Shown here: positions 7,355 to 9,344 of the stretch, in pieces | How positions within the stretch are numbered: the first letter of the stretch is position 1 | Layout of the letters: each line of letters begins with the position of its first letter | Source of the DNA: Terrabacter sp. Root181 | GTDB taxonomy: Bacteria > Actinomycetota > Actinomycetes > Actinomycetales > Dermatophilaceae | NCBI RefSeq assembly: GCF_001428505.1 | Contig: NZ_LMHU01000001.1 | Coordinates: 16,273 to 80,272, forward strand | DNA: 64,000 nucleotides | Direction of reading: 5' to 3' | Position numbers and translations under genes: made by a program | Notes under the pieces: model-generated | Database searches by the model: none | Told to the model about the DNA's origin: nothing | Seen by the model: the letters and a program-made list of their open reading frames with translations, nothing else

Positions 7355-8254
7355 ATGCCGCAGACCACGCACCTCGCCCAGGAGATCGCCACGCAGCCGG
7401 ACGACTGGGAGCGCGTCGTCACGCGCCTCGACGACGTGGCGCGGCACCTCCCGCGCCCCGGCGAGCGGGTCGCGACGATCGGGTGCGGCACGTCGTGGTT
7501 CATGGGACAGGCGTATGCCGTCCGCCGCGAGGAGCTCGGTCAGGGCCCCACCGACGCGTATGCCGCCTCCGAGCACCAGCTCGCGCGCGGCTACGACCGC
7601 GTCGTCCTGATCAGCCGCTCCGGCACGACGAGCGAGGTCATGGCCGTCGTCGAGGAGCTGCGCGCCTCGGGTACGCCGCACGTGTCGATCGTCGCGACGG
7701 CCGGCACCCCGGTGGCCGAGCGCTCCGACGCGACAGTGCTGCTCGACGACGTGGACGAGCAGAGCGTTGTGCAGACCCGCTTCGCCACGACGACCCTGGC
7801 CCTGCTCCGCGCCTCGCTCGGCGACGACATGCGGCCGGTGGCCGAGCAGGCCCGCGCCGTCCTCGCCGAGGACACCTCGGCGGCATACGGCCATCTCGCT
7901 CTGGCCGAGCAGGTCACCTTCCTCGGTCGCGGCTGGTCCAACGGCATCGCCAACGAGGCCGCGCTCAAGCTGCGCGAGTCGGCCCAGTTCTGGTCCGAGT
8001 CCTACCCCGCCATGGAGTACCGCCATGGTCCGATCAGCATCGCGGCTCCGGGCCGGGCCGTGTGGGCCTTCGGCGAGGTGCCCCAGGGGCTGCCCGAGCA
8101 GGTGCGCGCGACCGGTGCCCACTTCGAGCACCGTGACATCGACCCGCTCGCCGACCTCGTGCGCCTGCACCGCCTCTGCCTCGGCAAGGCCGACGCCGCC
8201 GGCCTCGACCCCGACGCCCCGCGCAACCTCACCCGCAGCATCGTCCTCACCTGA
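7355..8254 (+). CDS. SIS-domain sugar isomerase/deaminase (AgaS-like)
   Basis: A 299-residue protein with two SIS domains. The first phosphosugar site reads IGCGTSWFMG and SRSGTTSE (about residues 44-95), and the second GRGWSNGIANEAALKLRES (about 187-205) followed by EYRHGP. This is the architecture of AgaS and GlmS-isomerase-type enzymes, which act on aldo/ketose 6-phosphates, usually removing ammonia from an amino sugar phosphate. With the kinase and aldolase genes nearby, conversion of galactosamine-6-phosphate to tagatose-6-phosphate is the favoured role. A fructosamine-6-phosphate deglycase (FrlB type) is an alternative. ATG 7355 follows a GGGAG site. Transcription is divergent from the repressor and ends in the 8257-8490 repeat array. 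Confidence 0.85.
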   Translation: MPQTTHLAQEIATQPDDWERVVTRLDDVARHLPRPGERVATIGCGTSWFMGQAYAVRREELGQGPTDAYAASEHQLARGYDRVVLISRSGTTSEVMAVVEELRASGTPHVSIVATAGTPVAERSDATVLLDDVDEQSVVQTRFATTTLALLRASLGDDMRPVAEQARAVLAEDTSAAYGHLALAEQVTFLGRGWSNGIANEAALKLRESAQFWSESYPAMEYRHGPISIAAPGRAVWAFGEVPQGLPEQVRATGAHFEHRDIDPLADLVRLHRLCLGKADAAGLDPDAPRNLTRSIVLT

Positions 8255-8256
8255 CC

Positions 8257-8490
8257 CCGTCGAAAGGCCACCTCGGGCCCACCCCCGACCGTCGAAAGGC
8301 CACCTCTGGCCCACCCCCGACCGTCGAGAGGCCACCTCGGGCCCACCCCCGACCGTCGAAAGGCCACCTCTGGCCCACCCATCCCGTCAGGAGAGGTGGG
8401 CGACACCTGGCCTCTCGACGGTTGCGGCGGGGCAACACGTGGCCTCTCGACGGTTGCGGCGGGGCAACACGTGGCCCTTCGACGGTTGAA
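8257..8490. repeat. 32-bp-period array of direct and inverted repeats
   Basis: Four head-to-tail 32-base units start at 8257, 8289, 8321 and 8353, each beginning CCGTCGARAGGCCACCTC. They are followed, after a 23-base centre, by three units in the opposite orientation starting at 8408, 8440 and 8472, each beginning TGGCCTCTCGACGG or a one-base variant. The core is identical in both arms, but the linker sequences differ (C-rich in the forward units, GTTGCGGCGGGGCAAC in the reverse units). Period is exactly 32 bases throughout. It fills the gap between two convergent genes, so it can fold as a long RNA hairpin and act as a two-way terminator. No open reading frame is supported. Confidence 0.9.
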
Positions 8491-8510
8491 GCGGGTGGCT
8501 GGTGGAGGGG

Positions 8511-9344
8511 TCAGCGGAGGGCCAGGAGAGTCATCAGGCGGGCGGCCTCGTCGGTGACGGCGTCACGAGCCGCCCCGAGGTACTTCCTCGTGTCGACCGT
8601 CGGCGACGCCTCGAGGCGCGCCGTCATCGCGCGGGTGAACACCTGGTTGAGGTGCGTCGCGATGTTGACCTTGGTCATGCCGGCCCGCACTGCCGCGACG
8701 AGACCATCGTCGGGCACGCCGGACGAGCCATGCAGCACCAGGGGCACCGGCACCGAGTCCCTCAGTGCCGCAATGAGATCCGTGTCCAGCTCGGCGGTGC
8801 GGTCGGTCATCGCGTGGCTGCTGCCGACGGCCACGGCCAGGGCGTCGACGCCCGTGTCGGCGACGAAGCGCGCCGCGTCGTCGGGGTCGGTGCGCACGCC
8901 GGGCGCGTGGACGCCGTCCTTGCCGCCGACCTCGCCCAGCTCGGCCTCGACGCTGACCCCCGCGGCGCGGCACAGCCCGACGACCCGACGGGTCACGGCG
9001 CGGTTCTCGTCGTCGGCCAGCGTCGAGCCGTCGAACATCACCGACGTGAGCCCGAGCCGGACCGCCTCTCTGACGAGCGCGACGTCCTCGGCGTGGTCGA
9101 GGTGCACGACGACCGGCTGGGCACACGCGTCCGCGATGGCGAGCGTCGCTGCCGCGATCGGGGCGAGCGAACCGTGGTAGCGCACGCAGTTCTCCGAGAT
9201 CTGCATGACGACGGGCAGGCCGACCCGCTCGGCCGCGGCGGCATACGCCTCCGCGTGCTCGAGCTGGATGACGTTGAAGGCCGCCACGGCGCGGCCGGCG
9301 GCTGACGCCTCGGCGAGCAGGGGCGTCAGGGCGGAGCGGGTCAC
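8511..9344 (-). CDS. class II fructose/tagatose-bisphosphate aldolase (GatY/KbaY type)
   Basis: A 277-residue zinc-dependent aldolase. Visible motifs are AAFNVIQLEHAEA near the N-terminus, VVVHLDHAED (metal-binding His), AELGEVGGKDG, AVAVGSSHAMT and LVLHGSSGVPDDG (second His and substrate loop). Such enzymes cleave ketose-1,6-bisphosphates to dihydroxyacetone phosphate and glyceraldehyde-3-phosphate. Being the last gene of the ROK kinase, PfkB kinase, aldolase operon points to tagatose- rather than fructose-bisphosphate. The GTG start at 9344 overlaps the stop of the kinase by 4 bp (GTGA), supporting both the start and cotranscription. Its 3' end abuts the 32-bp repeat array. Confidence 0.9.
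   Translation of the reverse strand: MTRSALTPLLAEASAAGRAVAAFNVIQLEHAEAYAAAAERVGLPVVMQISENCVRYHGSLAPIAAATLAIADACAQPVVVHLDHAEDVALVREAVRLGLTSVMFDGSTLADDENRAVTRRVVGLCRAAGVSVEAELGEVGGKDGVHAPGVRTDPDDAARFVADTGVDALAVAVGSSHAMTDRTAELDTDLIAALRDSVPVPLVLHGSSGVPDDGLVAAVRAGMTKVNIATHLNQVFTRAMTARLEASPTVDTRKYLGAARDAVTDEAARLMTLLALR

What the first reader, a model, noticed from the sequence alone, without database searches (positions are those of the whole stretch)
8257..8490. Seven-copy 32-bp-period repeat array in head-to-tail and inverted halves
Four direct units and three inverted units share the core CCGTCGARAGGCCA, all with an exact 32-base period, which is close to three helical turns. That spacing is kept in both arms although the linkers differ in sequence, which suggests selection on phasing and not just recent duplication. 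It could be a multi-site binding platform for a DNA-bending or nucleoid protein, a large cruciform, a repressor sink for the flanking sugar genes, or an elaborate RNA terminator. It is not a CRISPR: linkers are short and repeated, and the array is inverted.
Basis: partly seen in the sequence, partly recalled or inferred. Interest (0 to 1): 0.8.

Follow-up and report, generated by a model that had tools for sequence, protein, structure and literature searches.

The report
Phased repeat arrays at gene ends
The repeat array in the window is one copy of a large family of short, evenly spaced DNA repeats that a small group of soil bacteria carries just after the ends of its genes, probably acting as two-way stop or buffer zones between genes.

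Summary
The array is real: four direct and three inverted units, 32-bp steps. It is not local: the genome (Terrabacter-like) holds 72 exact 14-mers against 0 reversed controls, and nearly all phased pairs found lie in a few Dermatophilaceae genera. In Terrabacter and Humibacillus 448 of 497 same-orientation steps are exactly 32 bp, and 140 of 181 with mutually unlike linkers. Another genus (G034) uses the core at 22, 30-34, 38-42 and 53-55 bp, roughly one DNA turn apart. Arrays start a median 15 bases after stop codons, face the gene that ends there (181 of 222), favour convergent junctions and rarely lie in divergent gaps (6 of 158). Where arms meet head to head (86 of 158 clusters) the centre is often a strongly covarying hairpin; outer linkers do not covary, so it is not one long cruciform. 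Orthologous sites gain, lose or replace arrays. Best reading: a lineage-specific REP/BIME-like 3'-end element in which sites for an unidentified DNA-binding protein, set on one helix face, flank a hairpin and end or insulate transcription from both sides. Geometry and location are shown; protein and termination are inferred.

The parts
7355..8254 (+). SIS-domain sugar isomerase gene whose stop codon lies just before the array
   Evidence: gene call; Pfam SIS PF01380, E 1.4e-20
8257..8270 (+). unit 1, CCGTCGAAAGGCCA
8289..8302 (+). unit 2, CCGTCGAAAGGCCA
8321..8334 (+). unit 3, CCGTCGAGAGGCCA
8353..8366 (+). unit 4, CCGTCGAAAGGCCA, innermost unit of the left arm
8367..8407 (.). head-to-head linker (53 bp start to start of the 12-mers); an uncommonly long centre with a short inner stem of its own in the predicted fold
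8408..8421 (-). unit 5, inverted, CCGTCGAGAGGCCA
8440..8453 (-). unit 6, inverted, CCGTCGAGAGGCCA
8472..8485 (-). unit 7, inverted, one mismatch (CCGTCGAAGGGCCA)
8511..9344 (-). class II aldolase gene, convergent; its stop codon lies just beyond the array
   Evidence: gene call; Pfam PF01116, E 3.4e-81

Best explanation
The array is one member of a lineage-restricted family of 3'-end elements, REP/BIME-like in habit. The unit is an asymmetric 12-bp site, GTCGARAGGCCA, with a weakly conserved extension. SHOWN: units follow stop codons, mostly point in the sense direction of the gene that ends there, are repeated head to tail at a fixed step (32 bp in Terrabacter and Humibacillus; mostly 22 bp, then about 33, 41 and 54 bp in G034), and where two gene ends meet the two arms usually face each other, often across a covarying hairpin. 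INFERRED: each unit is bound by an unidentified sequence-specific DNA-binding protein, neighbours contacting each other on one face of the helix; the bound array obstructs RNA polymerase from the gene on each side, and a hairpin formed in the nascent RNA helps to release it, so that the element ends transcription from both genes and insulates them. Arrays grow and shrink by tandem duplication inside an arm, which preserves the step.
For: Genome-wide family: 39+33 exact 14-mers, reversed control 0+0. 3'-end habit: 86 convergent, 66 codirectional, 6 divergent of 158 clusters; median 15 nt from stop codons; nearest unit sense in 181 of 222 at 3' ends but 18 of 35 at 5' ends; in G000 alone convergent junctions are enriched (20 of 39 against 30 of 227 other junctions, Fisher p 4.6e-7). 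Rigid step: 448 of 497 at 32 bp, 140 of 181 when linkers more than 70% alike are counted once, while head-to-head gaps are loose (15 of 68 at their mode of 29). Helical classes: G034 steps outside the 22-bp class lie within 2 bp of 22+k*10.5 in 19 of 29 cases (11.0 expected, p 5e-5); Terrabacter/Humibacillus head-to-head gaps outside the modal class in 19 of 33 (12.6 expected, p 0.016). Hairpin: 30 distinct 41-nt centres of gap 29, 93.5% of cells paired against 83.3% shuffled and 34-44% slid, covariation score 0.304 against 0.119, 0 of 500 shuffles; within-genome permutation of inner linkers 0.675 against 0.451, n 97. Two arms go with two gene ends: head-to-head pairs in 60 of 86 convergent but 25 of 66 codirectional clusters (head-to-head against single-orientation, Fisher p 7.9e-5).
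Against: No binding protein is identified and no transcript data exist. Steps outside the 32-bp class in Terrabacter/Humibacillus are not phased beyond chance (4 of 8, 3.0 expected), and G034 head-to-head gaps fit 9 bp (R 0.78) better than 10.5 (R 0.70; phase test 4 of 6, p 0.08). 72 of 158 clusters have no head-to-head pair (65 of one orientation, 7 tail to tail), and thus no such hairpin. 41 of 222 units at 3' ends are antisense. At the window's orthologous site one species has no array and two have another repeat. Palindrome covariation can also come from template switching rather than selection. No U-tract at this array. Orthologous arrays of related species were counted separately, so p-values are optimistic.
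Confidence: 0.45

Rival explanations
1. Selfish REP- or MITE-like repeat with no host function: copies persist after stop codons because insertion there is harmless, amplify by tandem duplication, and their palindromic centres are kept perfect by template switching; the step is set by whatever enzyme once moved them.
For: Patchy distribution (11 of 186 family genomes with a 32-bp pair); copy number 6 to 122 in the genus members; empty, filled and replaced orthologous sites; near-identical linkers within an arm.
Against: No Y1 (RAYT-type) transposase in 38 of 38 genomes searched, which include the 9 of the genus but not G034 or the Humibacillus genome G087; no copies found in viral contigs, plasmids or phages; sense polarity at 3' ends and the rigid step with unlike linkers are not expected of a tolerated passenger.
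Confidence: 0.3
2. RNA-only element: a two-way terminator or mRNA 3'-end protecting hairpin, with the C-rich tandem units in the sense RNA serving as Rho loading sites.
For: Strongly covarying central hairpin; sense polarity and position after stop codons; linkers C-rich in the sense strand (position table); fold of the window array -165.1 kcal/mol, z -10.5.
Against: Outer linkers do not pair between arms beyond chance; a fixed 32-bp step and 22/33/41/54 classes are not needed by RNA; no U-tract at the window array; 72 of 158 clusters lack a head-to-head pair.
Confidence: 0.15
3. Supercoiling buffer in the manner of BIME-2: the array recruits gyrase or a bending nucleoid protein where convergent transcription piles up positive supercoils.
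For: Enrichment between convergent genes; steps of about whole helical turns.
Against: 66 of 158 clusters lie between codirectional genes; gyrase is universal while the repeat was found in few genera.
Confidence: 0.08
4. Chance local tandem expansion confined to this spot.
For: Near-identical linkers within each arm.
Against: 72 exact copies genome-wide against 0 in the reversed control, and 6 to 122 copies in the eight other genus members searched.
Confidence: 0.02

Closest known systems
REP / BIME elements (E. coli and others; GTAG- and CGTC-tagged REP superfamilies, PMC3733652; RAYT-linked REPs, PMC2817692)
   Same: Short, high-copy, extragenic, mostly between convergent or codirectional genes and near 3' ends, paired head to head, uneven between relatives; CGTC REPs are said to lack a dedicated transposase (passages and section 6 of PMC3733652; passages of PMC2817692).
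   Different: Here the unit is an asymmetric 12-bp site, not a self-contained tagged palindrome; units run head to tail at a fixed 32-bp (or 22-bp) step in polar arms; only the innermost pair covaries as a hairpin. The main text of PMC3733652 has no occurrence of 'Actinobact', 'Streptomyces' or 'Mycobacter'.
RNA polymerase I terminators (roadblock protein plus RNA hairpin; PMC12366685, abstract and outline seen)
   Same: Works like it in outline: protein sites after a gene combined with a hairpin. That some rDNA terminators carry tandem polar sites (Sal boxes) is recalled, not from a call.
   Different: Eukaryotic and rDNA-specific; here two-sided, genome-wide and with no known protein. An analogy, not a membership claim.
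Intrinsic (rho-independent) terminators
   Same: Hairpin shortly after stop codons, shared by convergent genes.
   Different: No U-tract found at the window array (other arrays not scanned); tandem polar arms; many arrays of one orientation without a hairpin.
CRISPR arrays
   Same: Regular spacing of a short repeat.
   Different: Linkers within an arm are near copies of each other, arms are inverted, and arrays follow many unrelated genes. cas genes were not searched for.

Membership tests
REP/BIME | high-copy, extragenic, dispersed | tested here: met
   72 exact copies in G000; 39 of 41 clusters outside gene calls
REP/BIME | near 3' ends, between convergent or codirectional genes | tested here: met
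   86 convergent, 66 codirectional, 6 divergent of 158
REP/BIME | each unit is itself a 20-40 bp imperfect palindrome with a GTAG or CGTC tag at one end | tested here: not met
   the core GTCGARAGGCCA is asymmetric and the covarying palindrome arises from a head-to-head pair. Some linkers add a short GGCCA...TGGCC stem, others do not. The core does begin with CGTC when the preceding C is counted
REP/BIME (RAYT-linked) | RAYT (Y1) transposase in the genome, flanked by the repeat | tested here: not met
   PF01797: 0 of 38 genomes, the 9 of the genus included, G034 and G087 not included; the control search rings in 5 of 14 known genomes
REP/BIME | binds gyrase, IHF or DNA polymerase I | not testable with these tools
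   no binding data
MITE | terminal inverted repeats with target-site duplications matching an IS | tested here: inconclusive
   arms face inward and one empty site looks clean; no duplication was seen by eye at the few sites read, and no parent IS was sought
intrinsic terminator | stable hairpin | tested here: met
   covariation in 30 head-to-head centres of gap 29; the window's own centre is of another type (53-bp gap) and 72 of 158 clusters have no head-to-head pair
intrinsic terminator | U-tract after the stem | tested here: not met
   0 found on either strand at 8150-8600; other arrays not scanned
phased protein-binding array | steps of whole helical turns | tested here: met
   G034 same-orientation 19 of 29 outside the modal class, p 5e-5; Terrabacter/Humibacillus head-to-head 19 of 33, p 0.016; but Terrabacter/Humibacillus same-orientation 4 of 8 and G034 head-to-head 4 of 6 not significant
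phased protein-binding array | a protein that binds the unit | not testable with these tools
   none identified
CRISPR | equal-length unique spacers and cas genes | tested here: not met
   linkers within an arm are near copies; cas genes not searched for

The most novel reading that the evidence does not exclude
A bacterial counterpart of roadblock terminators: polar tandem sites for a dedicated, lineage-specific protein, spaced by whole helical turns and set behind gene ends, stop RNA polymerase from either side and hand it to a central hairpin. The step can be re-set by one turn (32 to 22 bp) between genera while the core stays the same.
Probability: 0.25. Interest if true: 0.85.

Novelty: new variant of a known kind. 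Interest (0 to 1): 0.6.

Why it matters
How high-GC actinobacteria end transcription without U-tracts is not settled (background, recalled). This family offers many natural sites (171 clusters from Terrabacter and Humibacillus and 64 from G034 were read here) whose geometry varies between otherwise similar genomes: number of units, step, orientation, hairpin present or absent. The roles of protein sites and hairpin could be separated by comparing transcript ends. It also shows that a fixed spacing can be maintained while the sequence between sites turns over, and that the same core is used at two steps about one helical turn apart.

Tried and rejected
Local chance expansion: rejected. One long cruciform or nested hairpin: rejected, because outer linkers are not mirrored beyond chance (positions 1-8: 0.594 against 0.608; 9-20: 0.405 against 0.449; n 49), although the whole array folds well as RNA. 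An earlier permutation across species had suggested mirroring at positions 1-10 (0.623 against 0.494); this was not seen when permuting within genomes (positions 1-8). In one search the purine position was read from the wrong index; one search corrects it. Searches used a set that still held two G034 loci (L020, L032) and a few loci of other genera; one search is the clean count. The purine-agreement figures (79 of 90 head to head, 51% expected; 77% of 488 tandem pairs, 58% expected) come only, and the linker profile (144 linkers) only.

RAYT-type transposase: none in 38 of 38 genomes, G034 and G087 not among them. Viral contigs: 0 exact matches for steps of 30-34 and 20-24; plasmids and phages: no match to the window array at E 1e-5. 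Hits in two Myxococcus records are a 15-bp-period tandem repeat, taken as unrelated; a Glaciihabitans record has a doubtful 31-bp pair; a MAG labelled Nocardioides (L089) has three units at 32 bp and looks like a true member, wrong binning not excluded.

Genes bracketed by inward-facing arms were first read as mobile cassettes. Two of the three cases fit the plain rule that units follow 3' ends (a gene sits in the middle of a convergent array); in the third, two genomes that carry the gene (L336, L337) have units on one side only. Among consecutive clusters 400-2500 bp apart in the loci read, 15 pairs face inward, 4 outward and 3 are parallel, loci partly redundant. Left as a side observation. 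The bracketed gene of case 2 has no Pfam, NCBIfam or solved-structure match, only weak AbiEi matches in PADLOC. No structure prediction was run.

Paper searches listed no description of this repeat; one search covered the 12-mers as text and found three unrelated papers. Only open-licence PMC papers were searched, and most listed papers were seen as listings only.

Full report
OBSERVATION. The window holds four direct units starting at 8257, 8289, 8321 and 8353 and three inverted units at 8408-8421, 8440-8453 and 8472-8485, with exact 32-bp steps in each arm. Six match CCGTCGARAGGCCA; the last has one mismatch. In the window the 12-mer GTCGARAGGCCA with up to one mismatch occurs only here, 7 times against a shuffled mean of 1.21. 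Linkers within an arm are much alike, so the local array alone does not show selection on phasing. The array fills the gap between a SIS-domain gene (stop codon at 8252-8254) and a convergent class II aldolase gene (stop at 8511-8513).

DISTRIBUTION. The window's genome has 72 exact 14-mers (39 forward, 33 reverse) and none of the reversed control. Of 58 genomes searched (the window's own and relatives), 16 have at least one match: the 8 other members of the genus (G001-G008) have 6, 40, 8, 122, 21, 62, 70 and 35, one other genus (G034) has 125, and six more have 1 each; reversed controls are 0 to 2 per genome. A 32-bp-phased pair of 12-mers occurs in 11 of 186 family genomes (7 of 9 in the genus, plus one genome in each of four other genera) and, with a gap of 4-34, in 3 of 396 genomes drawn from the order: G000, G004 and a single match elsewhere taken as chance. 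No copy was found in viral contigs, plasmids or phages.

ANATOMY AND SPACING. Pooling fetched loci of Terrabacter and Humibacillus (171 clusters, 770 units; each cluster with at least one exact 12-mer, other units with up to two mismatches), 448 of 497 same-orientation steps are exactly 32 bp, 26 are 31 and 9 are 33. Counting linkers more than 70% alike once, 140 of 181 are 32. Among 144 such 20-nt linkers of a slightly wider set the last 10 positions are on average 36% identical between arrays (the 70% filter lowers this figure somewhat), so length is kept where sequence is not. Head-to-head gaps in the same arrays are loose: 15 of 68 independent ones at the mode of 29. In G034 (64 clusters, 164 units) the same core is spaced at 22 bp (40 of 77), 30-34 (23), 38-42 (7) and 53-55 (3), the other 4 elsewhere. 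The G034 linkers of the 38-42 and 53-55 classes hide no decayed unit better than random letters tend to give. Tested against phase 10.5 relative to the modal class, 19 of 29 G034 steps fall within 2 bp (11.0 expected, p 5e-5), as do 19 of 33 Terrabacter/Humibacillus head-to-head gaps (12.6 expected, p 0.016). Against: 4 of 8 Terrabacter/Humibacillus same-orientation steps outside the 32 class (3.0 expected, not significant), 4 of 6 G034 head-to-head gaps (p 0.08), and for the latter 9 bp fits better than 10.5.

HAIRPIN. In 30 distinct head-to-head centres of 41 nt (gap 29), a 19-pair stem has 93.5% of cells paired, against 83.3% after shuffling partners and 34-44% after sliding; covariation score 0.304 against 0.119, 0 of 500 shuffles. 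Pair 6-36 is GC in 16 and AU in 13 of 30; pair 13-29 is GC 12, CG 9, AU 7. Permuting within genomes, the first six linker letters mirror each other at 0.675 against 0.451 (n 97, eight genomes); six of the seven genomes tested singly have p below 0.05 (Humibacillus 0.088). Outer linkers show no such mirroring (n 49). So a selected or mutationally maintained hairpin lies at many centres, and the outer units are a tandem array whose linkers do not pair. The window's own centre has a 53-bp gap and is not of this type; it has a short stem of its own in the predicted fold.

PLACE AND POLARITY. In 32 G000 stretches plus the window, 41 clusters fall at 20 convergent, 17 codirectional and 2 divergent junctions and 2 within gene calls, against 30, 147 and 50 for other junctions (Fisher p 4.6e-7). 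Over the long loci, 158 clusters: 86, 66 and 6 (2 more inside gene calls); the distance to 3' ends has a median of 15 nt; the nearest unit is sense to the ending gene in 181 of 222 cases within 60 nt, against 18 of 35 at 5' ends. Head-to-head pairs are present in 60 of 86 convergent, 25 of 66 codirectional and 1 of 6 divergent clusters; 65 clusters have one orientation only and 7 are tail to tail. Genes were called with a simple codon model of my own, and related species are counted separately.

TURNOVER. At the orthologue of the window's junction five genomes have a core array of 4 to 13 units with different linkers, two (G001, G003) have a different GCGCGC-type palindromic repeat, one (G005) has its stop codons about five bases apart with nothing between, and for the ninth, the incomplete G002, no such junction was among the listed matches. 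Elsewhere a gene sits between two inward-facing arms. Case 2: gene and arms are present in five genomes and both absent in three; G002 gave no such locus. Case 1: gene absent, with no units, in G001; present in the other eight, of which G003 and G008 have units on one side only. Case 3: gene present in all nine.

MECHANISM. A step fixed near whole turns, kept with unlike linkers and re-set by about one turn in another genus, is what a row of DNA-bound proteins touching on one face would demand. A sense-facing position right behind stop codons, with two arms where two genes end, points to the end of transcription. The covarying centre points to a hairpin in RNA or cruciform DNA. I therefore favour a two-sided end-of-transcription element made of polar protein sites plus a hairpin, at 0.45. 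The strongest rival is a selfish REP-like repeat (0.3): the distribution is patchy, empty sites exist, and template switching can perfect inverted repeats (starts of the abstracts of PMC7202029 and PMC8604942, seen in the listing only).

COMPARISON. By habit this is REP/BIME-like, but the unit fails the defining palindrome-with-tag feature and no RAYT was found in the 38 genomes searched. The CGTC superfamily is reported without a dedicated transposase and from five phyla, Actinobacteria not among them (PMC3733652, passages and section 6). RepRanger (PMC12306157) lists actinobacterial genomes, but its main text has no 'Terrabacter', 'tandem', 'convergent' or 'helical' (term search, one passage seen). 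As an analogy of action, Pol I termination combines a roadblock protein with an RNA hairpin (PMC12366685, abstract). I file it as a new variant of a known kind.

Noticed in passing
window 7510, 9240, 23877, 25127, 25619, 41956, 43735, 52593: GGCGTATGCC occurs 8 times in the window against 0.07 expected; all eight lie in called genes in the same codon frame (Ala-Tyr-Ala). In array-centred loci it is 28 in 242 kb of G000, 14 in 112 kb of URHB0013, 6 in 80 kb of Humibacillus, 0 in 40 kb of G034 and 0 in 32 kb of I. flavum. An iterated motif of unknown role, also seen beside several arrays.
   Followed up: partly
L196 (G003) and L199 (G001), the orthologue of the window junction; also G004: A different palindromic repeat (CGCGCTC...GAGCGCG, about 70-bp period) fills the same junction; 34 sites in G004, 26 in G001 and 13 in G003, against 3, 6 and 4 for the reversed control; the window's genome has 5 against 5.
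   Followed up: partly
L232:3492-4824; also L094, L319, L320, L321: A gene of about 330 codons (no Pfam match, weak AbiEi matches in PADLOC) sits between inward-facing arms in five genomes and is absent together with the arms in three.
   Followed up: partly
L207:3404-4480: An alpha/beta hydrolase gene with inward-facing units upstream and downstream; G001 lacks gene and units at a clean-looking junction, while G003 and G008 have the gene with units on one side only.
   Followed up: partly
L247-L266, L277-L313 (G034): Two linker classes in one genome: a 22-bp unit, often with AATAGA-type linkers, and 30-42 bp units, often with CTTCCCGAC-type linkers.
   Followed up: partly
L089 (MAG labelled Nocardioides): Three units at 32 bp outside the family; horizontal transfer or wrong binning.
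   Followed up: no
L073, L077 (Myxococcus): A 15-bp tandem repeat that contains the same 12-mer; the codon-multiple period suggests a protein repeat, unrelated.
   Followed up: no
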